Assembly: GCA_943736015.1 (NCBI GenBank)
Contig: OX031069.1
Location: forward strand, 23,317,235 to 23,381,234
From: Tridacna crocea
Taxonomy: Eukaryota; Mollusca; Bivalvia; Cardiida; Cardiidae
DNA: 64,000 nt
Reading direction: 5' to 3'
The first letter of the stretch is position 1. Each line of letters begins with the position of its first letter. Positions 21,701 through 36,508 of the stretch are shown here, one piece after another. A model generated the notes under the pieces. That model had not been told where the DNA came from. It ran no database searches and saw only the letters and a program-made list of their open reading frames with translations. Made by a program: the position numbers and the translations under genes.

Positions 21701-24700
21701 ACAGAAAACATTGTGGGAAAAGGAGAAAATGCTGGTAACCAGCATTTTCTCCTTCTCCCACAAGGTTTTCTACCCTTCATGAAACAAATTTTAAATTTTC
21801 AGTCACTTTTATTTTGTCATCTGCAAATGCTTTCGATTTGGATAAACCTAAAATATTGTCATTTGGTAATGACTTGATGGATCTGTAATGTATTATAGTA
21901 TAATGACTTGCTTAGTATTTTGCCTGAAGAATATGTGTTGACTCATTACCACACAATCCCTACTTTTGACGCCCGTGAAAAAGAAGCATTTAGAAAGCAT
22001 TGTGGGAAAAGGAGAAAATGCTGGTAACCAGCATTTTCTCCTTTTCCCACAATGTTTTCTACCCTTCACGAAACAAATTTCAAATTTTCAGTCACTTTTA
22101 TTTTGTCATCTGCAAATGCTTTCAATTTGGACCAGTCTAAAATTTTGTTGTTTGGTAATGAGTTAAGACCCTTTTTGCCAGAGCATGGCTCAAATTTATT
22201 GTTCGGTTTAACCCTTATCCTGTTGAGTAACTGAGATGAAATTTTCAAGTTGATTGTACAACCCAAATGTTGCAATTTCAAGGGTATTTTTTAGGGAATA
22301 TATATCTACTTAGTGGAGAATGTAGATCCAAGATCAGACTGCATGTTCTGTGCAGTCTGATCTTGATCTACACTTTCCGCAAAAGGTCAGTGGATAAGGC
22401 TTAGCAGCCTTAGGGTTAAATGAACCAGAATTTACTAATCCTTTATCATTTTTTTTTTCTACATTTTAGGCCCACTAAAGCCATGGGAGATTTACAGTGT
22501 ATCTTAGAAGGATTAAAAGAGTAAGAAAATGGCTTTTTTTACCTGAAACTCTTTACAGTACGACAAAATATCATACTACTCCAAATTGAAAACATTTGCA
22601 GACGTCAAACTCAAGTATATTGAAACTTTTCAATTTTTTTGTCAAATTGCTGGTGGGGTATAAAGTCGCATTCAGTGACAGCTCTAGTTTCTTCTTCATT
22701 TAAGTAGTATTCAGGATTGTTTGGTAAATGTTTGACTTTCTTGGGGGCCTACATTAATGTAATCTTTTACCAAGCAAGAAAATTCCATACTTGTCCAATT
22801 TGAAAGCATTTGCAGATGATAATATAGAAGTAGTTAAAAGGATAATTTCTGTCTTTTTTATTTTGTTTCTTTTCACATTACCACAGAATCCCTACTTTTG
22901 ACGCCCCTAAGAAAGAAGCCTTTTGAAAACACTGTAGGAAAAGGAGAAAATGCTGGTAACCAGCATTTTCTCCTTTTCCCACAGTGTTTTCTATCCTTCC
23001 CAGAACAAATTTCAGTTTTTCAGTGACTTTTGTGTTGTTGTCTGCAAATGCTTTTGATTTGGACAAGTCTAAAATATTGTCGTTTGGTAAAGAGTTAAAA
23101 GGATTGGACTTGTCTTTGTAAGGTCAGAAAAAATTGTGAAAAAAAAAAAAGGAGAAAAACTCTGATGTCCAGCATTTTCTCCTTTTTCCGCAAAGTTTTC
23201 AGAAGCTTTGGACTTTGAGACTTATCCATATTTATAGCACCAGCTTTTTAGCTCACCTGAGCACGAAGTGCTCATGGTGAGCTATTGTGATCGTGCTGTG
23301 TCCGTCGTCTGTCGTCCGTCGTCAACTTTTTACCTTGTGTACGCTCTAGAGGCCACAGTTTTGGTCGGATACTCATGAAAGTTGGTCAGGATGTTTGTCT
23401 TGATGAAATCTCAGACGAGTTCGAAAATGGGTCATGTGGGGTCAAAAACTAGGTCACTAGGTCAAATCTTAGAAAAACCTTGTGTACGCTCTAGAGGCCA
23501 CATTTTGAGTCGGATACTCATGAAAGTTGGTTGGGATGTTTGTCTCGATGATATCTCGGACGACTTAGAAAACGGGTCACGTGGGGTCAAAAACTAGGTC
23601 ACTAGGTCAAATCTTAGAAAAACCTTGTGTATGCTCTAGAGGCCACATTTTGAGTCGGATACTCATGAAAGTTGGTTGGGATGTTTGTCTCGATGATATC
23701 TCGGACGACTTAGAAAACGGGTCACGTGGGGTCAAAAACTAGGTCACTAGGTCAAATCTTAGAAAAACCTTGTGTACGCTCTAGAGGCCGCATTTTGAGT
23801 CAAATACTCATGAAAGTTGGTCAGGATGTTTGTCTCGATGATATCTCGGACGAGTTCGAAAATGGGTCACGTGGGGTCAAAAACTAGGTCACCAGGTCAA
23901 ATCTTAGAAAAACCTTGTGTACGCTCTAGAGGCCGCATTTTCAGTTGGATGCTCATGAAAGTTGGTCAGGATGTTTGTCTGGATGATATCTCGGACAAGT
24001 TAGAAAATGGGTCACGTGGGGTCAAAAACTAGGTCACCAGGTCAAATCTTAGAAAAACCTTGTCTACGCTCTAGAGGCCGCATTTTCAGTCAGATACTCA
24101 TGAAAGTTGGTCAGGATGTTTGTCTGGATGATATCTCGGACGAGTTCGAAAGTGGGTTACGTGGGGTCAAAACTAGGTCACCAGGTCAAATCTTAGAAAA
24201 ACCTTGTGTACGCTCTAGAGGCCGCATTTTCAGTCAGATACTCATGAAAGTTGGTCAGGATGTTTGTCTGGATGATATCTCGGACGAGTTCGAAAGTGGG
24301 TTACGTGGGGTCAAAACTAGGTCACCAGGTCAAATCTTAGAAAAACCTTGTGTACGCTCTAGAGGCCACATTTTCAGTTGGATACTCATGAAAAATGGTC
24401 AGAATGTTTGTCTGGATGATATCTCGGACGAGTTTGAAAGTGGGTCACGTGGGGTCAAAAACTAGGTCACCAGGTCAAATTTTAGAAAAACCTTTTGTAG
24501 GGTCTAGAGGCCACATTTTCAGTCGGATACTCATGAAAGTTGGTCAGGATGTTTGTCTGGATGATATCTCGGACGAATTTGAAAATGGGTCATGTGGGGT
24601 CAAAAACTAGGTCACTAGGTTAAATCTTAGAAAAACCTTTTGTACGCTCTAGAGGCCACATTTTCAGTTGGATACTCATGAAAGTTGGTTGGGATGTTTG

Positions 24701-27700
24701 TCTGGATGATATCTCGGACGAGTTCGAAAATGGGTCACGTGGGGTCAAAAACTAGGTCACTAGGTCAAATCTTAGAAAAACCTTTTGTACGGTCTAGAGG
24801 CCACATTTTCAGTTGGATACTCATGAAAGTTGATCAGGATGTTTGCCTGGATGATATCTCGGACAAGAAAGAAAATGGGTCATGTGGGGTCAAAAACTAG
24901 GTCACTAGGTCAAATGTTAGAAAAACCTTTTGTAGGCTCTAGAGGCCACATTTTCAGTCCGAAACTCTTGTAAGTTGGTCAGAATGTTTGTCTTGATGAT
25001 ATCTCAGACAGGTTTGAAAATGGGTCATTGGGGGTTAAAAACTAGGTCACCAGGTCAAATCTTAGAAAAACCGTGTATATGCTCTGGATGCCACATTTTC
25101 AGTCCAACACTCTTGAAAATTAGTCAGAATGTTTGCCTTTATAATATCTTGGATGAGTTTGAAAATGGGTCATGTTGGGTCAGAAACTGGGTCAATAGGT
25201 CAAATGTTATAAACACCTTTTGTATGCTCTGGAGGACACATTTTCAGTCTGATACTCCTAAAACTTGTTCATAATATTTGTCCTGGTGATACCTTGAATG
25301 AGTTTGAAAATGGGTCATGTGGAGTCAAAAACTAGGTCAATGGGTCAAATATTAGAAAAACCTTGTGCACACACTCCAGAGGCTACATTTTCTGCCTGAT
25401 ACTCTTCAGACTTGGTCAGAATGTTTGTTTTGGTGATGTCTCAAAAGAGTTTGATAATGGGTATTTGTCGGGTCCAAAACTAGGTCACTTGATGAAATCT
25501 TAGAAAAACCTTTTGTACACTGTAAAGGCCACATTTTCAGTCCAATACTCATGAAACTTGGCCAGAATGTTTGTCTTATTGATATCTCAAAAGTGTTTGA
25601 TGATGGGTAATGTCTGATAAAAAACTAGGTCACTGGGAAACTAGATGGTGCATGTTTGGTCAATAAACTCAGGTGAGTGATTTCAGGGCCATCATGGCCC
25701 TCTTGTTTGATATATTTCTGCAAGGTTTTCAAGTCTTCTTCTTTAGGGTTGTTAACAATCGGATTCGTGTGGTAAAGGGTTAAAACCTGTTTATAATCAA
25801 TTCCTTTTCTAGAATATCTTTAACCTTTTAATATGGACAAAGCCTGAAAGGCTTTTGAAACATTGTTGGAAAATGAAATGCCTTAACATGTATCAAGCAT
25901 TGGTAAACAAATGAGTGAGTGAGTGAGTGAGTCAGTCAGTGAGTGGATGTGCAAGTGAGTGAGTGATTCGGTGGATGTGCAAGTGAGTGAGTGATTCGGT
26001 GGATGTGCAAGTGAGTTAGTGAGTGATTCGGTGGATATGCAAGTGAGTGAGTGAGAGAGTGACTGAAAATCATGCAACTTTATTATCTGATATCATTTCC
26101 CTAAACAGTTTGCCAGCAGGTCAATATTTAGTGAACAATCAGCCCAAGAGGGATCATGTGACTATCTTCAAAGCTGCTCCAGAAGGAGAGAGGTGAGTTT
26201 TAAACCTCTGTCTTGAAATGGTTTTGTTTTTCATTGTTGTATATTATGCATGCATTTTTGCTAGGAAAAATACTTCACTTACCTGTAGGAAGGGGAGCAG
26301 GGGACTTCCCTTGAACTGCAATTATCTCTTTGGTGCATGACCAAATCAAAGACTTATTTAAATTTAAAAATCTGCCTGAAACAAAGAAAGTATGGCTCAA
26401 ATATTAGCTAGTGTTTGTGATAAGGTGAAAAACATGGTGGGAAAAGAAGGCTGGCCCCTAGCATTTTCTGTTTTCAAAAGCCCTTTTCCTCTAGCATGTT
26501 CAAATCATTATCTGTAAATGCTTTCAACTTGGCCCAGTCTAAAATCTAGTTTTTTGATAAAGGATTGATGACACTGGTCACAACTCATCCTATTCGTGAA
26601 CTCTTTACCAGACAACCCTGAGTTTTCATGACTCCTTAAGATAGAAGCCTTTTGAAAAAAATGTTGGAAAAGGAGAAAATGCTGGTAACTAGCATTTTCC
26701 TCTTTTACCACAATGTTTTCTACCCTTCCCAAACCAAATTTTAATTTTTCAGTCACATTAATTTGCTGTCTGCTAATACTTTCAGTTTGGACTAGTCTAT
26801 AAATTTATCATTTGGTAAAGAGTTAATTGTTTTGTTTTGCTTCATTTTAAGCAGGATTTCCTCAGCATTATCAACCATGGATAACTTTACTCAGATAAGC
26901 ACTTTAACCCTTTACCACACAATCCCAACTTTCAACACCTCTGTGAAAGAAGCCCTTTGAAAACATTGTAGGAAAAGGAGAAAAAATGCTGGTCACCAGC
27001 ATTTTCTCCTTTTCCCACAATGTTTTCTTCCCTTCCTAAAATCTTCATCAAAAGACAAAACGTAAGGCTTGTCCAAATGAAAAGCATTTGCAGAGGTAAA
27101 GATAAATGTTATTCTAAAATTGAAACTTGACTTTAGAAGAGTTGAAAACATTGTGGGAAAAGGAGAAAATGCTGGTAACCAGCATTTTCTCCTTTCCCCA
27201 CAAGTTTTCAGAAGCCTTCTTCCTCTGGATGGTAAACACCAGGGATTGTTTGGAAAAGGTTTACATAAGTTTCAATTCTTTGGTCACATTTATTGTGTTG
27301 TCTGCAAATGCTTTCAGTTTGGACCAATCTAAAATTTTGACGTTTGGGAAAGCATAAAGGCTTATGGCTCACTAGCCTCTTTTCATGTATTATTGCAGGG
27401 GACCATTTTGTCAGATGAGCACTTAAAGGCCTATGGCTATCTAGCCTCTTTACATGTATTATTGCAGGGGACCATTTGTCAGATGAGCACTTTAAGGTCT
27501 AATCTCTCTTGTCTCTTGTGATGTATTATTGCAGGGGACTATTTTTTCAGATGAGCACTTTAAGGCCTTTGGCTCTCTTGCCTCTTTTCATATATTATTG
27601 CAGGGGACCATTTTGTCAGATGAGCACTTTAAGGTCTAATCTGTCTTGTCTCTTGTGATGTATTATTGCAGGGGACCATTTTTTCAGATGAGCCCTTTAA

Positions 27701-30700
27701 GGCCTATGGCTCTCTTGCCTCTTTTCATGTATTATTGCAGGGGACCATTTTTTCAGATGAGCCCTTTAAGGCCTATGGCTCTCTTGCCTCTTTTCATGTA
27801 TTATTGCAGGGGACCATTTTTTCAGATGAGCACTTTAAGGCCTATGTCTCTCTTGTCTCTTGTCATGAATTATTGCAGGGGTCCATTTTTTCAGATGAAC
27901 ACTGTAAGGCCTATGGCTCTCTTGTCTCTTGTCATGTATTATTGCAGGGGACCATTTTTTCAGATGAGCACTTTAAGGCCTATGGCTCTCTTGCCTCTTT
28001 TCATGTATTTTTTGCAGGGGACCATTTTGTCAGATGAGCACTTTAAGGCCTATGGCTCTCTTGTCTCTTTTCATGTATTATTGCAGGGGACCATTATGTC
28101 AGATGAGCACTTTAAGGCCTTAAGGCCTATGGCTCTCTTGTTTCTTTTCATGTATTATTGCAGGGGACCATTTTTTCAGATGAACACTTTAAGGCCTATG
28201 GCTCTTTTGTCTCTTGTGATGTATTATTGCAGGGGACCATTTTTTCAGATGAGCCCGTTAAGGCCTATGGCTCTCTTGCCTCTTTTCATGTATTATTGCA
28301 GGGGACCATTTTGTCAGATGAGCACTTTAAGGCCTATGGCTCTCTTGTCTCTTTTCATGTATTATTGAAGGGGACCATTTTGTCAGATGAGCACTTTAAG
28401 GCCTATGGCTCTCTTGTGTCTTTTCATGTATTATTGCAGGGGACCATTATGTCAGATGAGCACTTTAAGGCATTAAGGCCTATGGCTCTTTTGTTTCTTT
28501 TCATGTATTATTGCAGGGGACCATTTTGTCAGATGAGCACTTTAAGACCTATGGCTCTCTTGTTTCTTTTCATGTATTATTGCAGGGGACCATTTTTTCA
28601 GATGAACACTTTAAGGCCTATGGCTCTCATGCCTCTTTTTATATATTATTGCTAGGGACCATTTTTTCAGATGAGCACTTTAAGGTCTAATCTCTCTTGC
28701 CTCTTTCCATGTACTATTTCAGGGGACCATTTTGTCAGATGAGCACTTTAAAGCCTATGGATCTCATGCCTCTTTTCATGTATTATTGCAGGGGACCATT
28801 TTGTCAGATTAGCACTTTAAGGCCTATGGCTCTCTTGCCTCTTGTCATGTATTATTGCAGGGGACCATTTTGTCAGATGAGCACTTTAAGGCCTATGGCT
28901 CTCTTGTTTCTTGTCATGTATTATTGCAGGGGACCATTTTGTCAGATGAGCACTTTAAGGCCTATGGCTCTCTTGTTTCTTATGTATTATTGCAGGGGAC
29001 CATTTTGTCAGATGAGCACTTTAAGGCCTTAACTCTTTACCACATGAGAAAATTTTAGACTGGTTCAAATTGAAAGCATTTGCAGACGACAAAATAAAGG
29101 TGACTGAAAAATTGAAATTTGTTCTGGGAAGTGTAGAAAACACTGTGGGAAAAGGAGAAAATGCTGGTTACCAGCATTTTCTCCTTTTCCCACAGTGTTT
29201 TCAAAAGGCTTCTTTCTCAGGGGCGTCAAAAGTAGGGATTGTGTGGTAATGGGTTAAGGCCTATGGCTCTCTTGTTTCTTGTCATGTACTATTGCAGGGG
29301 ACCATTTTGTCAGATTTGCACTTTAAGGCCTATGGCTCTCTTGTCTCTTGTCATGTATTATTGCAGGGGACCATTTTGTCAGATGAGCACTTTAAGGCCT
29401 TTGGCTCTCTTGCCTCTTTTCATATATTATTGCAGGGGACCATTTTGTCAGATGAGCACTTTAAGGTCTAATCTGTCTTGTCTCTTGTGATGTATTATTG
29501 CAGGGGACCATTTTTTCAGATGAGCCCTTTAAGGCCTATGGCTCTCTTGCCTCTTTTCATGTATTATTGCAGGGGACCATTTTTTCAGATGAGCCCTTTA
29601 AGGCCTATGGCTCTCTTGCCTCTTTTCATGTATTATTGCAGGGGACCATTTTTTCAGATGAGCACTTTAAGGCCTATGGCTCTCTTGTCTCTTGTCATGA
29701 ATTATTGCAGGGGTCCATTTTTTCAGATGAACACTGTAAGGCCTATGGCTCTCTTGTCTCTTGTGATGTATTATTGCAGGGGACCATTTTTTCAGATGAG
29801 CACTTTAAGGCCTATGGCTCTCTTGCCTCTTTTCATGTATTTTTTGCAGGGGACCATTTTGTCAGATGAGCACTTTAAGGCCTATGGCTCTCTTGTCTCT
29901 TTTCATGTATTATTGAAGGGGACCATTTTGTCAGATGAGCACTTTAAGGCCTATGGCTCTCTTGTGTCTTTTCATGTATTATTGCAGGGGACCATTATGT
30001 CAGATGAGCACTTTAAGGCCTTAAGGCCTATGGCTCTCTTGTTTCTTTTCATGTATTATTGCAGGGGACCATTTTTTCAGATGAACACTTTAAGGCCTAT
30101 GGCTCTCTTGTCTCTTGTGATGTATTATTGCAGGGGACCATTTTTTCAGATGAGCCCGTTAAGGCCTATGGCTCTCTTGTCTCTTGTCATGTATTATTGC
30201 AGGGGACCATTTTTTCAGATGAGCACTTTAAGGCCTATGGCTCTCTTGTCTCTTTTCATGTATTATTGAAGGGGACCATTTTGTCAGATGAGCACTTTAA
30301 GGCCTATGGCTCTCTTGTGTCTTTTCATGTATTATTGCAGGGGACCATTATGTCAGATGAGCACTTTAAGGCCTTAAGGCCTATGGCTCTTTTGTTTCTT
30401 TTCATGTATTATTGCAGGGGACCATTTTGTCAGATGAGCACTTTAAGACCTATGGCTCTCTTGTTTCTTTTCATGTATTATTGCAGGGGACCATTTTTTC
30501 AGATGAACACTTTAAGACCTATGGCTCTCATGCCTCTTTTTATATATTATTGCTAGGGACCATTTTTTCAGATGAGCACTTTAAGGTCTAATCTCTCTTG
30601 CCTCTTTCCATGTACTATTGCAGGGGACCATTTTGTCAGATGAGCACTTTAAAGCCTATGGATCTCATGCCTCTTTTCATGTATTATTGCAGGGGACCAT

Positions 30701-33700
30701 TTTGTCAGATTAGCACTTAAAGGCCTATGGCTCTCCTGCCTCTTGTCATGTATTATTGCAGGGGACCATTTTGTCAGATGAGCACTTTAAGGCCTATGGC
30801 TCTCTTGTTTCTTGTCATGTATTATTGCAGGGGACCATTTTGTCAGATGAGCACTTTAAGGCCTTAACTCTTTACCACACGAGAAAATTTTAGACTGGTT
30901 CAAATTGAAAGCATTTGCAGACGACAAAATAAAGGTGACTGAAAAATTGAAATTTGTTCTGGGAAGGGTAGAAAACACTGTGGGAAAAGGAGAAAATGCT
31001 GGTTACCAGCATTTTCTCCTTTTCCCACAGTGTTTTCAAAAGGCTTCTTTCTCAGGGGCGTCAAAAGTAGGGATTGTGTGGTAATTGGTTAAGGCCTATG
31101 GCTCTCTTGTTTCTTGTCATGTATTATTGCAGGGGACCATTTTGTCAGATTTGCACTTTAAGGCCTTTGGCTCTCTTGTCTCTTGTCATGTATTATTGCA
31201 GGGGACCATTTTTTCAGATGAGCACTTTAAGGCCTTTGGCTCTCTTGCCTCTTTTCATATATTATTGCAGGGGACCATTTTGTCAGATGAGCACTTTAAG
31301 GTCTAATCTGTCTTGTCTCTTGTGATGTATTATTGCAGGGGACCATTTTTTCAGATGAGCCCTTTAAGGCCTATGGCTCTCTTGCCTCTTTTCATGTATT
31401 ATTGCAGGGGACCATTTTTTCAGATGAGCCCTTTAAGGCCTGTGGCTCTCTTGCCTCTTTTCATGTATTATTGCAGGGGACCATTTTTTCAGATGAGCAC
31501 TTTAAGGCCTATGTCTCTCTTGTCTCTTGTCATGAATAATTGCAGGGGTCCATTTTTTCAGATGAACACTGTAAGGCCTATGGCTCTCTTGTCTCTTGTG
31601 ATGTATTATTGCAGGGGACCATTTTTTCAGATGAGCACTTTAAGGCCTATGGCTCTCTTGTCTCTTGTCATGAATTATTGCAGGGGACCATTTTTTCAGA
31701 TGAGCCCTTTAAGGCCTATGGCTCTCTTGTCTCTTGTCATGTATTATTGCAGGGGACCATTTTTTCAGATGAGCACTTTAAGGCCTATGGCTCTCTTGCC
31801 TCTTTTCATGTATTTTTTGCAGGGGACCATTTTGTCAGATGAGCACTTTAAGGCCTTAAGGCCTATGGCTCTTTTGTTTCTTTTCATGTATTATTGCAGG
31901 GGACCATTTTGTCAGATGAGCACTATAAGACCTATGGCTCTCTTGTTTCTTTTCATGTATTATTGCAGGGGACCATTTTTTCAGATGAACACTTTAAGGC
32001 CTATGGCTCTCATGCCTCTTTTTATATATTATTGCTGGGGACCATTTTTTCAGATGAGCACTTTAAGGTCTAATCTCTCTTGCCTCTTTCTATGTACTAT
32101 TGCAGGGGACCATTTTGTCAGATGAGCACTTTAAAGCCTATGGATCTCATGCCTCTTTTCATGTATTATTGCAGGGGACCATTATGTCAGATTAGCACTT
32201 AAAGGCCTATGGCTCTCTTGCCTCTTGTCATGTATTATTGCAGGGGACCATTTTGTCAGATGAGCACTTTAAGGCCTATGGCTCTCTTGTTTCTTGTCAT
32301 GTATTATTGCAGGGGACCATTTTGTCAGATGAGCACTTTAAGGCTTATGTCTCTCTTGTTTCTTATCATGTATTATTGCAGGGGACCATTTTGTCAGATG
32401 AGCACTTTAAGGCCTTAAGGCCTATGGCTCTCTTGTTTCTTGTCATGTATAATTGTAGGGGACCATTTTGTCAGATGAGCACTTTAAGACCTATGGCTCT
32501 CTTGTTTCTTTTCATGTATTATTGCAGGGGACCATTTTGTCAGATTTGCACTTTAAGGCCTATGGCTCTCTTGTCTCTAGTCATGTATTATTGCAGGGGA
32601 CCATTTTGTCAGATGAGCACTTTAAGGCCTATGGCTCTCTTGTTTCTTGTCATGTATTATTGCAGGGGACCATTTTGTCAGATGAGCACTTTAAGGCCTA
32701 TGGCTCTCTTGTTTCTTATCATGTATTATTGCAGGGGACCATTTTGTCAGATGAGCACTTTAAGGCCTTAACTCTTTACCACACGAGAAAATTTTAGACT
32801 GGTTCAAATTGAAAGCATTTGCAGACGACAAAATAAAGGTGACTGAAAAATTGAAATTTGTTCTGGGAAGGGTAGAAAACACTGTGGGAAAAGGAGAAAA
32901 TGCTGGTTACCAGCATTTTCTCCTTTTCCCACAGTGTTTTCAAAAGGCTTCTTTCTCAGGGGCGTCAAAAGTAGGGATTGTGTGGTAATTGGTTAAGGCC
33001 TATGGCTCTCTTGTTTCTTGTCATGTATTATTGCAGGGGACCATTTTGTCAGATTTGCACTTTAAGGCCTTTGGCTCTCTTGTCTCTTGTCATGTATTAT
33101 TGCAGGGGACCATTTTTTCAGATGAGCACTTTAAGGCCTTTGGCTCTCTTGCCTCTTTTCATATATTATTGCAGGGGACCATTTTGTCAGATGAGCACTT
33201 TAAGGTCTAATCTGTCTTGTCTCTTGTGATGTATTATTGCAGGGGACCATTTTTTCAGATGAGCCCTTTAAGGCCTATGGCTCTCTTGCCTCTTTTCATG
33301 TATTATTGCAGGGGACCATTTTTTCAGATGAGCCCTTTAAGGCCTGTGGCTCTCTTGCCTCTTTTCATGTATTATTGCAGGGGACCATTTTTTCAGATGA
33401 GCACTTTAAGGCCTATGTCTCTCTTGTCTCTTGTCATGAATAATTGCAGGGGTCCATTTTTTCAGATGAACACTGTAAGGCCTATGGCTCTCTTGTCTCT
33501 TGTGATGTATTATTGCAGGGGACCATTTTTTCAGATGAGCACTTTAAGGCCTATGGCTCTCTTGTCTCTTGTCATGAATTATTGCAGGGGACCATTTTTT
33601 CAGATGAGCCCTTTAAGGCCTATGGCTCTCTTGTCTCTTGTCATGTATTATTGCAGGGGACCATTTTTTCAGATGAGCACTTTAAGGCCTATGGCTCTCT

Positions 33701-36508
33701 TGCCTCTTTTCATGTATTTTTTGCAGGGGACCATTTTGTCAGATGAGCACTTTAAGGCCTTAAGGCCTATGGCTCTTTTGTTTCTTTTCATGTATTATTG
33801 CAGGGGACCATTTTGTCAGATGAGCACTATAAGACCTATGGCTCTCTTGTTTCTTTTCATGTATTATTGCAGGGGACCATTTTTTCAGATGAACACTTTA
33901 AGGCCTATGGCTCTCATGCCTCTTTTTATATATTATTGCTGGGGACCATTTTTTCAGATGAGCACTTTAAGGTCTAATCTCTCTTGCCTCTTTCCATGTA
34001 CTATTGCAGGGGACCATTTTGTCAGATGAGCACTTTAAAGCCTATGGATCTCATGCCTCTTTTCATGTATTATTGCAGGGGACCATTATGTCAGATTAGC
34101 ACTTAAAGGCCTATGGCTCTCTTGCCTCTTGTCATGTATTATTGCAGGGGACCATTTTGTCAGATGAGCACTTTAAGGCCTATGGCTCTCTTGTTTCTTG
34201 TCATGTATTATTGCAGGGGACCATTTTGTCAGATGAGCACTTTAAGGCTTATGTCTCTCTTGTTTCTTATCATGTATTATTGCAGGGGACCATTTTGTCA
34301 GATGAGCACTTTAAGGCCTTAAGGCCTATGGCTCTCTTGTTTCTTGTCATGTATAATTGTAGGGGACCATTTTGTCAGATGAGCACTTTAAGACCTATGG
34401 CTCTCTTGTTTCTTTTCATGTATTATTGCAGGGGACCATTTTGTCAGATTTGCACTTTAAGGCCTATGGCTCTCTTGTCTCTTGTCATGTATTATTGCAG
34501 GGGACCATTTTTTCAGATGAGCACTTTAAGGCATATGGCTCTCTTGTTTCTTGTCATGTATTATTGCAGGGGACCATTTTGTCAGATGAGTACTTTAAGG
34601 TTTCATCTCTCTTTTCTCTTGTCATGTATTATTGCAGGGGACCATTTGACCTACACTACTATCATGCCACTCAGAAAATCTACCAGAAGGGAAAGGAGCC
34701 AATCCGAGCAAGATGGGTTCCCATAGATACAGAACTGCTGCTACAACATCAGAAGAGATTGAATCTCATACCGTGTACTTTTACTGTTAATGGTATGTGC
34801 TGTAACATGCTTGTTTACTAAACATTCTCTTCTAAACCTTTACTAGGTTTTGACCCTGAGAAGAAACCATCTGAAAGCATTGCGAGAAAAGAAGAAATAC
34901 TGCTAACCAGCATTTTCTTTTTTTTCCCACAATCTCTTTTTTATTCTTTCAGTAACAAAGTTTGTTACTGGAGCATTATTTAACTCATTACCAAACGACA
35001 AAATTTTAGGTTTGTCCAAGTCGAAAGCATTTGCAGACAACAAAATAAAAGTGACTGAAAATTTGAAATTTGTTTTGGGAAGGTAGAAAACATTGTTTTC
35101 TACAGGCTTCTTTCTCAGGGTCGTCAAAAGTAGGGCTTGTGTGGTTAATGGGTTAATGGATGTGTCGTCTGCAAATTCTTTCATTTCGGACAAGGCTATA
35201 ATTTTGTCATCTGGTAAAGGGTATATCTCATTACAAATGGACAAAAATTTGGATACACTGAAATTTAAAGAATACTAGTATACCTTTTAGTGTTGCACAG
35301 AACGGTTGCTATCTTTAAAAGAATAAAAACCACTGTTGGAAAAGAAGAAAAGGCTGAGTACTGATTACCAGCATTTCTTTTTTTTTTGTTTTTAAATGCC
35401 TCTCTCTGAAGATCCTGAAAACATGGGACTATTATATGATACTCCTATACCAAACAGGGTACAGGACAATTAGATAATAAAACTTAAGAATTATCCATAT
35501 TGACCATTTTCAGATGATGAATTTATTATTGCTAAATTGGTGGGACATTCCCTATAGTGGGTAGAAAACATTCTGAAAGAGAAGAAAAATGCTAGTTACC
35601 CTCCTTCTTACACATTGCTTTCAGTAGTTATACACTTGCAAAACAAATGTTTTCGGGGTATACTCGAATCAGCCTGTGTATCCGTCTGTGTGTCCGTCAG
35701 TGTACAAAATACTAGTAATTTTGTGTCGCCAACTCCTTCTTAGTTTTCCTTCAATTGCATTGAAACTTTTGAAATATACTGATCATAATTATATTGAAAC
35801 TTTACAATTTTTCTGTCAAATCACTGGCAGGGTATAAAGTTGCATTCAGTGACAGCTCTAGTTTATTTAAGAAATAATCTTCTTTATCGTAGTATATCGT
35901 TCAATAAACCACAGTTGTGAGTTATGGGGCACAATAAATAATCTACGAGGGCAATAGCTATCGCCCTCGTGGATTATTTATTGTGCCTTATAACTCACAA
36001 CTGTGGTTTATTGAATGATATACCACGATAGAAAGAAGATTATTTCGATTCTAACTTGGCCAATTCTTAATGAAAGGAAAACAAGTTCAAACTAAGAGAA
36101 AAAATGCAGATGAAGATTATGTTCCATTGAATAACTCACTCATTGAATGACGTCACTCTGCATGGATTGTTGTAGATTTTACCATGTTTTCCTTGCACTG
36201 TGTTTACAGAGCCAAAGTCACATGTCATGTTAGAATCTTCATTTAAATAGTATTCAGGATTGTTTGGTAAATGTTTGACTTTCTTGGGGGCCTACATTAA
36301 AGTAATCTTTTACCAAGCAAGAAAATTTCATACTTGTCCAATTTGAAAGCATTTGCAGATGATAATACAGAAGTAATTAAAATGATAATTTCTGTCTTTT
36401 TTTATTTTGTTTCTTTTCACAGAGGCTCAAGGAAAATCAGCCCAAGCAAAAGAACAGAAATCTGGAAAAAAGAAGAAAAAACGCAAGCAGAAAAAGAAAA
36501 AAGCTTAG
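536..36508 (+). CDS. ICE2: ICE2 (NARG2) orthologue, little elongation complex subunit 2; partial at the N-terminus, 17 exons in window
   Basis: Little elongation complex subunit 2 works with ICE1 and ELL in the nucleus to promote Pol II transcription of snRNA genes. Joining 17 exons by GT/AG (one GC/AG) sites with consistent phases gives about 1,187 residues ending at TAG 36506-36508; human ICE2 is 982 residues. From memory of the vertebrate protein, collinear matches include a FPRF segment and EQKSYLD (N-terminal part), VEQQKFMKFL, LWNMPVTV, IIYVDKPL, then after a long acidic/serine-rich disordered middle the C-terminal NARG2_C domain: WKFGDFNLLIRC, LEYQPYYG, LPAGQYLV, RWVPIDTELLL and IPCTF. 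The tail is lysine-rich (KKKKKRKQKKKKA). The first coding exon(s), perhaps 80-100 residues, lie left of base 1. Intron sizes range from about 0.15 to 8.4 kb and nearly all of that length is repeats. Family and domain order are well supported; exon 15869-15889 is tentative. Confidence 0.9.
724..1184. mobile_element. Two TTAA MITEs (type A) in opposite orientation sharing one TTAA
   Basis: 724-959 (minus) and 956-1184 (plus) abut at a single TTAA (956-959). The pair forms a head-to-head inverted repeat. A C/CA-rich microsatellite follows at 1203-1231. Confidence 0.85.
1403..1632 (-). mobile_element. TTAA MITE, type A
   Basis: Complete. Followed at 1633-1866 by unassigned intron sequence with a decayed hairpin half near 1715. 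Confidence 0.85.
1867..2320 (-). mobile_element. Two tandem TTAA MITEs, type A
   Basis: 1867-2084 and 2081-2320 share the TTAA at 2081-2084 and lie in the same orientation; the second has lost its right TTAA and sits 80 bp upstream of ICE2 exon b. Confidence 0.82.
2401..2520 (+). CDS. ICE2: ICE2 exon b
   Basis: tttcag/GGG to GGG/gtatgt, 40 codons, phase 0 at both ends. The peptide GLLHRVEVEQQKFMKFLRY corresponds to the EVTEFLKFL helix of vertebrate ICE2. Confidence 0.87.
2809..3037 (+). mobile_element. TTAA MITE, type B
   Basis: Subfamily B: left end TTAACCCTTTACTCCATAG, hairpin AAAGGTGAAATTGCTCGTCA, right end ATGGGGTAAAGGGTTAA. TTAA at both ends. Confidence 0.88.
3100..4010. repeat. Tandem units of about 150-225 bp from a dispersed repeat
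   Basis: Four units share CTCCAACATTAGTGCTCAAA, TACCTCTTTCC(C/T)GGTTTCTC and GGGGGCTTCATGTAAAAA. Units begin near 3329, 3481, 3686 and 3909. The region from 3100 to 3328 looks like the head of the same element. No conserved coding frame. Confidence 0.75.
4027..4130 (+). mobile_element. TTAA MITE fragment
   Basis: Hairpin and right flank only, ending at the TTAA shared with the next element. Confidence 0.6.
4127..4580 (-). mobile_element. Type B MITE followed by type A MITE, shared TTAA
   Basis: 4127-4355 is type B reversed; 4352-4580 is type A reversed. With the fragment at 4027-4130 and an end fragment at 4581-4612, this makes a run of four elements just upstream of ICE2 exon c. Confidence 0.83.
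4634..4768 (+). CDS. ICE2: ICE2 exon c
   Basis: aaacag/GAA to CTG/gtaagt, 45 codons, phase 0. It encodes TQFPRFYQPVKRVDL. The acceptor has almost no pyrimidine tract because a MITE end fragment (4581-4612) lies just upstream; the alternative acceptor ttattag at 4609 would hit an immediate stop in phase. Confidence 0.8.
4884..5111 (+). mobile_element. TTAA MITE, type A with C-like ends
   Basis: Ends CCCTTTCCCAAACAATC and GGGAAAGGGTTAA, but hairpin AAAATGCTGGT: a type C end with a type A core. A decayed copy follows near 5112-5220. Confidence 0.85.
5268..5495 (-). mobile_element. TTAA MITE, type C
   Basis: Subfamily C: ends TTAACCCTTTCCCAAACA / GGGAAAGGGTTAA, hairpin core GAGAAATTGCTCGTTACGAG. 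TTAA both ends; it ends 36 bp before ICE2 exon d. Confidence 0.88.
5532..5672 (+). CDS. ICE2: ICE2 exon d
   Basis: tctttcag/GGC to GAG/gtatca, 47 codons, phase 0. It encodes GTVPRMVLPQVVSGLPQPC and ends VWDHE. It is weakly conserved and was assigned from phase and position. Confidence 0.8.
5822..6052 (-). mobile_element. TTAA MITE, type A
   Basis: Right TTAA mutated to TTAC. A CT-rich stretch follows at 6225-6345; otherwise 6053-6500 shows nothing recognisable. Confidence 0.8.
6508..6878. mobile_element. Decayed TTAA MITE plus a second half copy
   Basis: 6508-6735 is plus and degenerate; 6787-6878 keeps one hairpin arm and the right end GGTAAAGGGTTGA. They end 40 bp before ICE2 exon e. Confidence 0.65.
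6918..7074 (+). CDS. ICE2: ICE2 exon e
   Basis: ttttacag/GAA to CAAG/gtgaat, ending in phase 1. It carries FVFTSSAIKHLVEH and KLWNMPVTVRDY, the clear counterpart of the vertebrate LTSQSLFTLL...EQWEIPVCI segment. Confidence 0.88.
7167..7394 (-). mobile_element. TTAA MITE, type A
   Basis: Complete, TTAA both ends, 93 bp past the donor of ICE2 exon e. Confidence 0.87.
7620..7860 (+). mobile_element. tRNA-derived SINE
   Basis: tRNA-like head with A-box-like GACTCGATGGTTAGCA and B box GGTTCGATACC (7677-7687), body with TTTCTTTC and GGAAAGAAA segments, and tail GTTAAAATGGCGTTAAAC. Same tail as copies near 17640 and 57715. Confidence 0.75.
7861..8421. other. Intron sequence with AACG/GTTAA-rich palindromic pieces, no gene recognised
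   Basis: 7865-7980 contains several GTTAACG motifs resembling the hairpin at 9792-9937. 7997-8371 is an open frame of 124 codons with no family I recognise and no splice context. Confidence 0.4.
8422..9637. repeat. 1.2-kb foldback element whose arms are tandem repeats
   Basis: Left arm from 8422 (CTCCCTAAAAAGCGTCTAC) is the reverse complement of the right arm ending about 9637 (GTAGACGCTTTTTAGGGAG). Arms are about 480 bp with a 220-bp spacer. Each arm holds two direct units of about 220 bp carrying GTGTGCGTACGTTTTACTAT and runs of GTCTACAAG; the spacer holds a fifth, diverged unit. No coding potential. Confidence 0.88.
9792..9937. repeat. Hairpin with about 42-bp arms
   Basis: TTAATTCACG at the left and CGTGAATTAA at the right; arms contain CGTTAACATTCGCAGAGGCC and its complement. 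MITE-like. Confidence 0.75.
9950..10060 (-). mobile_element. TTAA MITE fragment
   Basis: Partial hairpin (AAATGTTG/CAACATC) and right flank. Confidence 0.6.
10196..10370 (+). mobile_element. TTAA MITE fragment, degenerate
   Basis: Hairpin GAAGAAAATGCTTGGAACAA with its complement; right end cut by the next element. Confidence 0.6.
10375..11632. mobile_element. 1.26-kb element with short TIRs and internal tandem units of about 150 bp
   Basis: Starts ATACGCCCAAAGGG and ends CCCTTCGGGCGTAT, near-perfect 14-bp inverted ends. Inside, about six units of CCATAACTTCCAAACTATAA ... GAACACATTATGGAGAAGTG ... GAGTTATTGCCCTTTG. No transposase. It ends 108 bp before ICE2 exon f. Confidence 0.78.
11741..13241 (+). 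CDS. ICE2: ICE2 exon f, large central exon
   Basis: tgtttttcag/AAGG to ATAG/gtaagc, 1,501 nt, phase 1 in and phase 2 out. It opens with the conserved HKIIYVDKPLIKTTQYTV and DRNKLYQKYALKS, then about 450 residues rich in Ser, Glu, Asp and Lys without predicted folds, including an ESDSDQSDDGLVIDVP acidic patch (vertebrates have DTDEECLIIDTE here) and a basic KRRSVEI...PKRRSLRS stretch that could be a nuclear localisation signal. Confidence 0.92.
13715..13948 (+). mobile_element. TTAA MITE, type B-like variant
   Basis: Hairpin AAGGTGAAATTGCTCAAATG with its complement; right half diverged from other B copies. Confidence 0.8.
14163..14264 (+). mobile_element. TTAA MITE right-end fragment
   Basis: Keeps GTCTGCAAATGCGTTAGATT and TTGTAATGAGTTAA only. 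Confidence 0.6.
14387..14478 (+). CDS. ICE2: ICE2 exon g
   Basis: cttgtag/GATC to ATCAG/gtatca, phase 2 in and phase 1 out. In that phase it encodes RITRSKSASAEV and FRRVTRKSLGS, a basic serine-rich continuation of exon f. Another frame is also open, but only this one joins correctly. Confidence 0.75.
14486..14860. mobile_element. Truncated MITE followed by complete type A MITE
   Basis: 14486-14636 (plus, truncated) begins 7 bp past the donor of ICE2 exon g; 14633-14860 (minus) is complete with both TTAA. Confidence 0.82.
15224..15274 (+). CDS. ICE2: ICE2 exon h, short
   Basis: The acceptor chosen is aactacag/TGCC, because the upstream ctag/GTAA gives a stop in the required phase. 51 nt, ends ATTG/gtattt in phase 1, encoding VPEQLFLSSIEEFEVEI. 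Confidence 0.7.
15336..15563 (+). mobile_element. TTAA MITE, type C
   Basis: Complete, both TTAA, 61 bp past the donor of ICE2 exon h. Confidence 0.88.
15633..15861 (-). mobile_element. TTAA MITE, type A, abutting the candidate micro-exon
   Basis: Right end GGTAAAGTGTTAA is 7 bp before the putative 3' splice site at 15868/15869. Confidence 0.83.
15869..15889 (+). CDS. ICE2: ICE2 candidate 21-nt micro-exon
   Basis: cttgaag/AGTT to TACG/gtaaga; phase 1 on both sides, so inclusion adds EFHKWKY and skipping is also in frame. The acceptor has no pyrimidine tract and lies 8 bp past the TTAA end of a MITE (15633-15861). Confidence 0.35.
16040..16498 (+). CDS. ICE2: ICE2 exon i
   Basis: tttgttgcag/ATGA to CAGTG/gttagt, phase 1 both sides. 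It is charged and Lys/Glu-rich and ends NLQAKLWKPVEKKGTASG, leading into the NARG2_C domain. Confidence 0.88.
16547..16775 (-). mobile_element. TTAA MITE, type A
   Basis: Complete, 48 bp past the donor of ICE2 exon i. Confidence 0.87.
17016..17244 (-). mobile_element. TTAA MITE, type A
   Basis: Complete; left end reads TTAACCGTTTACC. Confidence 0.87.
17352..17655 (+). mobile_element. tRNA-derived SINE, full length
   Basis: Head CACAGTGGCACAGTCGGTAG, B box GGTTTGATCCC (17409-17419), tail GCGTTAAATACCATACAATC. It shows the uninterrupted tail that is split by a MITE at 57718. Confidence 0.78.
17811..17944 (+). CDS. ICE2: ICE2 exon j, start of NARG2_C domain
   Basis: atttgtag/GTTC to ACAG/gtatgt, phase 1 to 0. 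It encodes SKVMFPLTHNVTYHQWKFGD and FNLLIRCSYHG, the hallmark core of the C-terminal domain. Confidence 0.92.
18045..18168 (+). mobile_element. TTAA MITE fragment
   Basis: Left half and hairpin; the right half is replaced by the next repeat. Confidence 0.6.
18169..19310 (+). repeat. CCCCCGCAAAACGAA element with tandem units of about 150 bp
   Basis: Begins ATACCCCCGCAAAACGAA, then units of TTGTGTCGCAAACTCCTCC ... TTGTATTGAAACTTTGCACA ... GAACTTGACACTTTT. A second head starts at 19076 after T/G homopolymers (19093-19132). It runs to within 5 bp of ICE2 exon k. Confidence 0.7.
19316..19442 (+). CDS. ICE2: ICE2 exon k
   Basis: cctttag/GGG to AGAG/gtaagt, phase 0 to 1. It encodes ATKLEYQPYYGFEKQAVSDI. 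A second donor seven bases upstream (CTTTG/gtaaga) would frameshift the next exon. Confidence 0.9.
19655..19769 (+). mobile_element. Fragment of the AGCTCACCTGAG-type element
   Basis: GGTGAGCTTTTGTGATCATG and ACCTTGTATATGCCCCAGAG resemble the head at 23250, then it is cut by a MITE. Confidence 0.5.
19770..19997 (+). mobile_element. TTAA MITE, type A
   Basis: Complete, both TTAA; right end of the GGGAAAGGGTTAA form. Confidence 0.85.
20070..20735 (+). mobile_element. Run of three MITEs (A without hairpin, B, degenerate A)
   Basis: 20070-20240 lacks the hairpin core (AACATTGTTTTCTCTC joins the arms); 20280-20512 is type B with an extra copy of the loop bases; 20509-20735 is degenerate and ends 40 bp before ICE2 exon l. 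Confidence 0.75.
20775..20859 (+). CDS. ICE2: ICE2 exon l, with GC donor
   Basis: gttacag/CTAG to TTCAG/gcaagt, phase 1 to 2. It encodes ARINPYNSEIMMMDSVELND. The donor is GC rather than GT but otherwise perfect consensus (CAG/GCAAGT), and the join to the next exon restores CGFRPTKAMG. Confidence 0.85.
21041..21262 (+). mobile_element. TTAA MITE, type A, asymmetric hairpin
   Basis: Hairpin shortened to GGAGAAAATGCCAGCATTTT; both TTAA kept. Confidence 0.82.
21357..21470 (+). mobile_element. Internally deleted TTAA MITE
   Basis: Hairpin joined directly to GGTAAAGAGTTTAA. Confidence 0.6.
21642..22166 (+). mobile_element. Two TTAA MITEs, type A
   Basis: 21642-21875 and 21938-22166, same orientation, 62 bp apart; the first contains a duplicated AGAAAACA before the hairpin. 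Confidence 0.83.
22208..22419. mobile_element. TTAA MITE, type D
   Basis: Different core: GATCAAGATCAGACTGC-type hairpin between TTAACCCTTATCC and CCTTAGGGTTAA. It ends 50 bp before ICE2 exon m. Confidence 0.8.
22470..22520 (+). CDS. ICE2: ICE2 exon m
   Basis: acattttag/GCCC to AAAGA/gtaaga, 51 nt, phase 2 both sides. It encodes PTKAMGDLQCILEGLKE, matching the helix before the LPxGxYL motif. Confidence 0.87.
22600..22873 (+). repeat. Duplicate of the 3' end of ICE2's last intron
   Basis: Matches 35795-35872 plus 36234-36420 in order and orientation, from TATTGAAACTTTTCAATTTT through GACTTTCTTGGGGGCCTACA to the tract TTTTGTTTCTTTTCAC. It stops where the real acceptor AG would be and is joined there to a MITE. 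Confidence 0.85.
22874..23098 (+). mobile_element. TTAA MITE, type A, left TTAA missing
   Basis: Left end begins ATTACCACAGAATCC directly after the duplicated pyrimidine tract. A decayed copy follows at 23100-23235. Confidence 0.8.
23250..25711 (+). mobile_element. AGCTCACCTGAGCAC element with about 16 tandem 145-bp units
   Basis: Head hairpin TAGCTCACCTGAGCACGAAG ... CATGGTGAGCT; units with GGTCAGGATGTTTGTCTGGA, GATATCTCGGACGAG and GGTCAAAAACTAGGTCAC; tail ACTCAGGTGAGTG and the hairpin GGGCCATCATGGCCCTCTTG. Terminal hairpin plus internal satellites suggest a Helitron/Helentron-derived non-autonomous element. Frames inside are short and not conserved. Confidence 0.8.
25715..25785 (-). mobile_element. 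TTAA MITE right-end fragment
   Basis: Ends GTGTGGTAAAGGGTTAA. Confidence 0.55.
25911..26065 (+). repeat. 28-bp minisatellite of GAGT type
   Basis: GTGAGTGATTCGGTGGATGT repeated about four times between plain GTGA repeats; it ends 43 bp before ICE2 exon n. Confidence 0.85.
26109..26192 (+). CDS. ICE2: ICE2 exon n
   Basis: ctaaacag/TTTG to AGAG/gtgagt, phase 2 both sides. It encodes LPAGQYLVNN and HVTIFKAAPEGE (vertebrate LQEGSYLLSH...LLIYKASDG). A 28-bp minisatellite ends about 43 bp upstream. Confidence 0.92.
26193..26598. other. Intron with one degenerate MITE
   Basis: 26390-26560 holds decayed MITE sequence (GGTGGGAAAAGAAGGCTGGC and TTTCAACTTGGCCCAGTCTA); the rest shows nothing. Confidence 0.45.
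26599..26826 (+). mobile_element. TTAA MITE, type A
   Basis: Left TTAA degraded (GTGAACTCTTTACC), right TTAA present. Confidence 0.8.
26904..27354 (+). mobile_element. TTAA MITE with a second MITE nested in it
   Basis: Left half 26904-27040 and right end 27269-27354 belong to one plus-oriented element; 27041-27268 is a minus-oriented copy inserted between them. The 69-bp array starts directly after. Confidence 0.7.
29029..29257 (-). mobile_element. TTAA MITE, type A, inside the 69-bp array (copy 1)
   Basis: Inserted at the TTAA of a GGCCTTAAGGCC junction; the same junction without insert occurs elsewhere in the array (for example near 28118 and 33757). Confidence 0.92.
30864..31092 (-). mobile_element. 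TTAA MITE, type A, inside the array (copy 2)
   Basis: Same insertion point as copy 1 relative to the units; right end GGTAATTGGTTAA is shared with copy 3 but not copy 1 (GGTAATGGGTTAA), so it spread with the higher-order unit rather than by transposition. Confidence 0.92.
32768..32996 (-). mobile_element. TTAA MITE, type A, inside the array (copy 3)
   Basis: Near-identical to copy 2, exactly 1,904 bp downstream of it. Confidence 0.92.
34638..34792 (+). CDS. ICE2: ICE2 exon o, preceded by the decoy-acceptor array
   Basis: attgcag/GGGACC to AATG/gtatgt, phase 2 to 1. It encodes GPFDLHYYHATQKIYQ, RARWVPIDTELLLQH and IPCTF, the most conserved end of NARG2_C. Its acceptor and first ten bases match every unit of the 69-bp array at 27356-34637. 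Confidence 0.92.
34793..35230. mobile_element. MITE fragments in ICE2's last intron
   Basis: 34838-34950 is a degenerate plus copy; 34980-35156 is a minus copy with the hairpin deleted; 35157-35225 is another right-end fragment. Confidence 0.65.
35636..35870 (+). repeat. Fragment of the CCCCCGCAAAACGAA-type element
   Basis: ACTTGCAAAACAAATGTTTT, ACTAGTAATTTTGTGTCGCC and CAGTGACAGCTCTAGTTT, the last being the element's usual end. Confidence 0.65.
35872..36055. repeat. Near-perfect inverted repeat, arms about 85 bp
   Basis: AAATAATCTTCTTTATCGTA at the left and its near-complement at the right, meeting at CGAGGGCAATAGCTATCGCC. It and the following sequence to 36233 are missing from the duplicate at 22600-22873. 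Confidence 0.85.
36423..36508 (+). CDS. ICE2: ICE2 last exon
   Basis: cttttcacag/AGGC, phase 1, to TAG at 36506-36508. It encodes EAQGKSAQAKEQKSGK followed by a run of Lys and Arg. A possible ATTAAA polyadenylation signal lies at 36556-36561. Confidence 0.88.

What the first reader, a model, noticed from the sequence alone, without database searches (positions are those of the whole stretch)
27356..34637. A train of about 95 decoy 3' splice sites in front of a real ICE2 exon
Each 69-bp unit carries a pyrimidine-rich tract, ATTATTGCAG and the first bases of the exon (GGGACCATT). The genuine acceptor at 34637/34638 is the terminal unit. So the intron-exon junction of a conserved gene has itself been amplified into satellite DNA. 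The spliceosome must pick the last of about 95 near-identical acceptors, or use some of the others. I know of no described system of this kind; it could act as a splicing sink, a source of variable in-frame insertions, or be neutral.
Basis: partly seen in the sequence, partly recalled or inferred. Interest (0 to 1): 0.9.

Follow-up and report, generated by a model that had tools for sequence, protein, structure and literature searches.

The report
Splice-site junction amplified into minisatellite
In one intron of an animal gene, the stretch where the intron ends and the next exon begins has been copied about 95 times in a row, leaving about 90 look-alike splice sites before the real one; small arrays of this kind were known in amphioxus, and this is an unusually large one.

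Summary
Observation confirmed. The intron before an ICE2 (Pfam NARG2_C) exon holds 95 copies of a 69-bp unit carrying the intron end and the first 10 exon bases; 91 keep AG: 90 decoys plus the genuine acceptor at 34637. The direction of origin is visible. The array ends in the conserved exon. Its 5' flank, behind a nested MITE, matches the unit only from TCAGAT onward, and upstream of that resembles it no more than background does. A duplication between two TTT triplets would give the period. The exact 19-mer occurs 72 times in the 1.05-Gb assembly, all in this array. 'Variable in-frame insertions' fail: all 90 decoys meet a premature stop. [quoted passage not shown] I file this as a very large mirage with higher-order repeats and co-amplified MITEs. 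Most likely it is near-neutral, exon definition from the donor at 34793 selecting the last acceptor. Site scores alone do not single that acceptor out, and no RNA evidence was available.

The parts
19316..19442 (+). ICE2 exon (NARG2_C profile 46-87)
   Evidence: Pfam 36 bits; AG/GT borders; genome match
22470..22520 (+). probable ICE2 exon
   Evidence: adding its peptide raises the domain match from 55.2 to 65.7 bits and extends it to profile 119; the ORF around it has no match on its own
26109..26192 (+). ICE2 exon upstream of the array; donor GAG|GTGAGT at 26193
   Evidence: NARG2_C 17.1 bits for the ORF alone, below the cut-off; donor 11.47 bits on a recalled matrix
26886..26907 (+). 5' flank of the array: TTT, then ACTCAGATAAGCACTTTAA, without exon bases; read as the pre-amplification intron
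   Evidence: only match to TCAGATGAGCACTTTAA (up to 2 mismatches, both strands) outside the array in 64 kb; the 52 bases upstream of 26891 align to the unit no better than background
26908..27353 (.). nested pair of palindromic MITEs at the TTAA of the first unit
   Evidence: two palindrome cores at 26982 and 27165; termini and nesting read by eye from the sequence
27354..34637 (+). junction minisatellite: 95 copies, period 69, ~1.9-kb higher-order blocks; 90 AG decoys at 27398..34569
29029..29257 (.). MITE copy 1 inside the array (TTAA at both ends), donor-like AAG|GTGACT at 29100
30864..31092 (.). MITE copy 2 inside the array, donor-like site at 30935
32768..32996 (.). MITE copy 3 inside the array, identical to copy 2, donor-like site at 32839
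34570..34637 (+). terminal 68-bp unit with the genuine acceptor; 15-nt pyrimidine run, branch-like TTCAT at -33
34638..34792 (+). ICE2 exon GPFDLHYYH...TVN, donor ATG|GTATGT at 34793

Best explanation
A mirage-type minisatellite. A ~69-bp segment running from just after TTT (ACTCAGAT...) in the intron to GGGACCATTT in the exon was duplicated in tandem once, probably through the shared TTT. It then grew by unequal exchange, unit by unit and later in ~1.9-kb blocks that carried along a MITE inserted at the unit's TTAA. Splicing most likely still joins 26192 to the last acceptor, 34637: the donor at 34793 defines the 155-nt exon, the repeat units carry no donor of 6 bits or more, and the terminal unit keeps the longest pyrimidine run. 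Stray use of any decoy gives a premature stop and so at best lowers ICE2 output. The array is therefore mostly neutral, with a possible small cost. Shown: array, flanks, frame outcome, confinement of the exact 19-mer to this locus. Inferred: the duplication step, the acceptor choice, near-neutrality.
For: Array and counts. 5' flank match at 26891 with 1 mismatch, none other outside the array in the window, and no GGGACCATTT (up to 1 mismatch) outside the array; upstream of 26891 no similarity to the unit (global score -10.0, 55% of 4000 background segments as high; a real unit scores 40). Flank-to-exon segment matches the period. Exon border conserved from F on: F->A costs 4.9 bits, D->A 2.6, L->A 5.1, H->A 3.6. 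NARG2_C found only in this gene. Block identity 98.2% (blocks 0-1), 94.2% (1-2), 99.2% (2-3); exact 1276-bp repeat at lag 1904. All 90 AG decoys give a premature stop, 86 in the array and 4 in the exon. Only 12 of 91 AG acceptors have a donor of 6 bits or more within 300 nt: nine before MITEs, plus two decoys and the terminal one before 34793. Precedent: amphioxus mirages were reported not to interfere with regular splicing.
Against: Decoys are not clearly weaker than genuine acceptors: on a recalled matrix 64 of 90 score at least as high as the terminal one, 5 higher. Of three other acceptors compared, one has a pyrimidine run of 21 but two have only 7 and 8; the one with 8, at 45817, is not proven to belong to ICE2. 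Four repeat units carry ACT|GTAAGG at 5.52 bits, and at a 5-bit threshold 32 of 91 acceptors have a donor within 300 nt, so the donor argument depends on the cut-off. Local RNA folding does not favour the terminal site: 84 of 90 decoys are more open. A run of 15 arises in 1-3% of random mutation trials, so it is a modest outlier. G->A costs only 0.2 bit and P->A gains 1.0, so of GPF only F is family-conserved. No RNA data, no second individual or species.
Confidence: 0.8

Rival explanations
1. Regulatory splicing sink: decoy acceptors, together with MITE-borne donors, form three decoy exons of 104 nt that hold the intron back or divert transcripts to decay, so ICE2 output depends on array length.
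For: Every AG decoy leads to a premature stop 69 nt or more before the donor; three MITE donors AAG|GTGACT (8.27 bits) lie 104 nt after decoy acceptors; decoy exons are described as mediating intron retention in OGT and other genes (passages of PMC12017769).
Against: The 20 bases around the AG are only slightly more uniform than the rest of the unit (0.973 vs 0.923; 3 of 69 circular shifts as high); the amphioxus arrays were reported not to interfere with regular splicing. No expression data.
Confidence: 0.1
2. The array predates the exon border: a satellite supplied the acceptor and the exon start came to resemble it.
For: The shared exon stretch is only 10 bp, and G and P of GPF are not family-conserved.
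Against: The exact 19-mer occurs nowhere else in the assembly (diverged copies elsewhere were not searched, the calls did not complete); the 5' flank lacks the exon bases and matches the unit only on its intron side; F and the following residues score as conserved at this border.
Confidence: 0.05
3. Assembly error: copy number or the near-identical 1.9-kb blocks are inflated or collapsed.
For: Two blocks share 1276 exact bases; the amphioxus paper notes that one mirage appears aberrantly assembled in the draft genome.
Against: Blocks differ from one another by 0.8-9%, and the contig is at least 23 Mb long in an assembly of 31 contigs.
Confidence: 0.05

Closest known systems
Mirage minisatellites of amphioxus (Adh3; globins BflGb6, BflGb9); PMC3087553, passages seen
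   Same: Tandem duplications spanning an intron-exon boundary; BflGb6 repeats the 3' intron end plus the 5' part of exon 2; many units keep AG/GT signals; concerted turnover
   Different: 3 and 6 units in the two BflGb6 haplotypes against 95 here; no higher-order blocks or co-amplified MITE in the passages seen; the host here is unidentified
ABCA7 intron 18 VNTR (human); PMC5954066, passages seen
   Same: A 25-bp VNTR whose first two bases are the exon 18 donor GT; about 12 to 427 units; one-unit cryptic donor use gives an out-of-frame transcript
   Different: Donor side; the VNTR is described as starting with the donor GT, so no exon bases in the unit; known polymorphism and RNA effects
IFI6 (6-16) minisatellite with multiple splice donors (Turri et al. 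1995; paper not held; title in two reference lists and one citing sentence seen)
   Same: Repeat units carry splice sites
   Different: Donor side; alternative donors give different protein isoforms
Decoy exons of retained introns (OGT, SF3B1, ARGLU1); PMC12017769, passages seen
   Same: Non-productive splice sites inside a long intron
   Different: The OGT decoy has two predicted 3' and two predicted 5' splice sites; not a repeat array
Internal tandem repeats at exon-intron boundaries in human segmental duplications; PMC2812944, passages seen
   Same: Repeat variation at an exon-intron boundary can change splicing
   Different: Exonic repeats leading to novel introns, in recent paralogs

Membership tests
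Mirage minisatellite | Repeat unit spans an intron-exon boundary of the host gene | tested here: met
   unit = intron end + 10 exon bases; flanks fit
Mirage minisatellite | Many units keep the splice signal | tested here: met
   90 of 94 non-terminal units keep AG
Mirage minisatellite | Unit length in the reported range (10-72 bp in Adh3, 150-160 bp in globins) | tested here: met
   69 bp; range
Mirage minisatellite | Concerted evolution within the cluster | tested here: met
   blocks 0-1 98.2% and 2-3 99.2% identical, blocks 1-2 94.2%; mean unit identity 0.89
Mirage minisatellite | Boundary units escape homogenisation | tested here: inconclusive
   9 of the other 90 units compared are more diverged from the consensus than the terminal unit
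Mirage minisatellite | Length polymorphism between haplotypes | not testable with these tools
   one assembly only
Mirage minisatellite | Regular splicing undisturbed | not testable with these tools
   no RNA data
Donor-type splice VNTR (ABCA7, IFI6) | Each unit carries a usable 5' splice site | tested here: not met
   commonest GT of the unit scores 0.43 bits against 11.47 and 7.28 for the authentic donors; four units have one of 5.52
Decoy exon | Paired 3' and 5' splice sites inside the intron | tested here: inconclusive
   three 104-nt candidates with a MITE donor, sequence only
Decoy exon | Promotes intron retention | not testable with these tools
   no RNA data

The most novel reading that the evidence does not exclude
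ICE2 is a core subunit of the little elongation complex, which supports expression of a subset of snRNA genes, and several snRNAs are spliceosome parts. The ~90 decoy acceptors could titrate early spliceosome components, so that productive ICE2 splicing, and hence snRNA supply, responds to splicing capacity: a repeat-encoded sensor whose gain is set by array length.
Probability: 0.02. Interest if true: 0.85.

Novelty: new member of a known kind. Interest (0 to 1): 0.45.

Why it matters
It is a natural experiment on 3' splice-site choice: one intron offers 91 AG acceptors in nearly the same context, and only the last keeps the ICE2 frame open. Sequencing cDNA from one animal would measure how strictly exon definition and proximity act. 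It is also much larger than the 3- and 6-unit amphioxus array in the passages seen, and shows how a splice junction can seed a minisatellite in a conserved gene.

Tried and rejected
In-frame variable insertions: rejected, 0 of 90 AG decoys open. The first version of that calculation used a wrong downstream exon start (its string search failed and gave position 9); it was redone without a downstream exon. The exon after 34792 was not settled: the ORF at 45788-47581 has an acceptor-like ATTATTGCAG ending at 45817, but its frame there (phase 0) does not fit the phase-1 donor at 34792, so an intermediate exon or another join is needed.

Array as one long exon: rejected, use of the first acceptor also meets a stop. 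RNA structure hiding the decoys: not supported; an earlier version gave pairing sums above 1 and is discarded. Selection on the decoy core: weak. Other tandem arrays of the window as junction arrays: longest strings shared with five exon or ORF stretches were 12 bases or fewer in the four arrays compared. Protein relatives: 85 candidates, none at E 0.01 or below. Viral contigs: 0 hits for the junction 21-mer and for the MITE core. PDB: one chance-level hit, E 0.58. Rfam: 0 matches. DDX3Y minisatellite: start sites, not splice repeats, in the passages seen. The taxon was not identified. The splice-site matrices are recalled human-like frequencies, not fitted to this species. Genome searches for diverged units and for a processed ICE2 copy did not complete.

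Full report
What is there. Between two exons of an ICE2 gene lies an intron of 8445 bases (26193-34637), most of it a tandem array of period 69. The unit consensus is GGGACCATTTTGTCAGATGAGCACTTTAAGGCCTATGGCTCTCTTGTCTCTTTTCATGTATTATTGCAG. Of 95 copies of the junction motif (up to 5 substitutions), 91 keep AG; the last, at 34637, is the genuine acceptor. Among 91 units of ordinary length (three that contain a MITE were left out of 94) there are 49 distinct aligned sequences and a mean pairwise identity of 0.89.

The gene. The exon after the array matches Pfam NARG2_C (31.2 bits). Joined to the exon before the array it gives one continuous match, profile 135-210, 55.2 bits, and with a probable 51-base exon upstream 65.7 bits. 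In the 1.05-Gb assembly the family search scored 4 candidates and reported three matches, all in this gene, one of them over the cut-off by itself. Replacing single residues by alanine shows that the border region is conserved from F on (F -4.9, D -2.6, L -5.1, H -3.6 bits), while R (-1.0), G (-0.2) and P (+1.0) matter little. That this family is ICE2, formerly NARG2, is recalled; Pfam calls it NMDA receptor-regulated gene protein 2 C-terminus.

Direction of origin. The unit shares 10 bases with the exon start and then departs from it. On the 5' side, TCAGATAAGCACTTTAA at 26891 is the only place in the 64 kb outside the array that matches the unit there (up to 2 mismatches, both strands), and GGGACCATTT (up to 1 mismatch) has no match outside the array. 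The flank is followed at its TTAA by a nested MITE pair, then by the first unit. Its 52 bases upstream of 26891 align to the unit with a score of -10.0; 55% of 4000 background segments and 69% of 4000 shuffles do as well, and a real unit scores 40. So it is not a decayed unit. The array begins in single-copy intron and ends in the exon, as expected if a segment between two TTT triplets was duplicated. The flank joined to the terminal unit gives 68 bases once a MITE base included by mistake is removed (printed as 69); the terminal unit is itself 68. The exact 19-mer across the junction occurs 72 times in the assembly, all here.

Growth. The array is organised in blocks of about 1.9 kb, separated by three MITE copies of 229 bases that differ by 0 or 3 positions. 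Blocks 0-1 are 98.2% identical, 1-2 94.2% and 2-3 99.2%; two blocks share 1276 exact bases. This points to recent exchange in large steps.

Consequences of decoy use. With the reading frame set by the NARG2_C exons, all 90 AG decoys run into a stop before 34792, 86 in the array and 4 in the exon, each 69 or more bases before the donor. This holds although 36 of 90 offsets are multiples of three. The consensus unit itself is open in the ICE2 phase (seen in the ORFs), but the 68-base terminal unit shifts a simple one-unit insertion out of frame. The isoform from the last decoy keeps only profile 119-164 (22.9 bits against 65.7).

Which acceptor wins. No RNA is available. The terminal unit has a 15-nt pyrimidine run; no decoy exceeds 9. 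It also has a branch-like TTCAT at -33; 16 of 90 decoys have such a motif at 18-44. The commonest GT of the units scores 0.43 bits, and no repeat unit has a donor of 6 bits or more. Only 12 of 91 AG acceptors have a donor of 6 bits or more within 300 nt, and nine of these depend on the MITE donors. Against this: four units have a 5.52-bit donor, and at a 5-bit threshold 32 of 91 acceptors have one within 300 nt. Further, 64 of 90 decoys score at least as well as the terminal acceptor on a recalled matrix, 5 of them better. Of three other acceptors compared, two are no stronger than decoys and one is stronger. Local folding favours the decoys (84 of 90 more open). Exon definition from the donor at 34793 is therefore my main argument, by inference.

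Known kind. [quoted passage not shown] The human ABCA7 VNTR starts with the exon 18 donor (passages of PMC5954066). In the ten answered paper searches I saw no 3' array of similar copy number, but the library is partial, I read passages only, and the original Adh3 paper is not held. The copy number, the higher-order blocks and the MITE-borne donors are what I did not find described.

Regulatory reading. [quoted passage not shown] A feedback from splicing capacity on ICE2 through the decoys is possible, but nothing here supports it beyond the coincidence.

Noticed in passing
window, e.g. 349, 851, 26982, 29157, 63739: 56 cores of one palindromic MITE (GAAAATGCTGGTNACCAGCATTTTC, up to 3 substitutions) in 64 kb, about one per 1.1 kb; the three array copies are flanked by TTAA.
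   Followed up: partly
28996-29099, 30831-30934, 32735-32838: Three possible 104-nt pseudo-exons: decoy acceptor plus MITE donor AAG|GTGACT.
   Followed up: partly
45788-47581: 598-codon open frame with 27-bp coding repeats; acceptor-like ATTATTGCAG ending at 45817; relation to ICE2 unclear because its phase does not fit the donor at 34792.
   Followed up: partly
43277-43660: THAP domain open frame, 36.6 bits.
   Followed up: partly
55094-56251: DDE_Tnp_4 transposase domain with HTH_Tnp_4 (84.5 and 65.6 bits).
   Followed up: partly
39342-39638 and 61837-62076 (minus strand): Pieces of AMP-binding enzyme sequence on the other strand (AMP-binding_C 49.8 bits; AMP-binding 24.0 bits, below its cut-off).
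   Followed up: partly
23332-25634 and 10604-11546: Further tandem arrays (145 bp x 15.9 and 156 bp x 6.0) near other probable exons of the same gene; no junction-type sharing found.
   Followed up: partly
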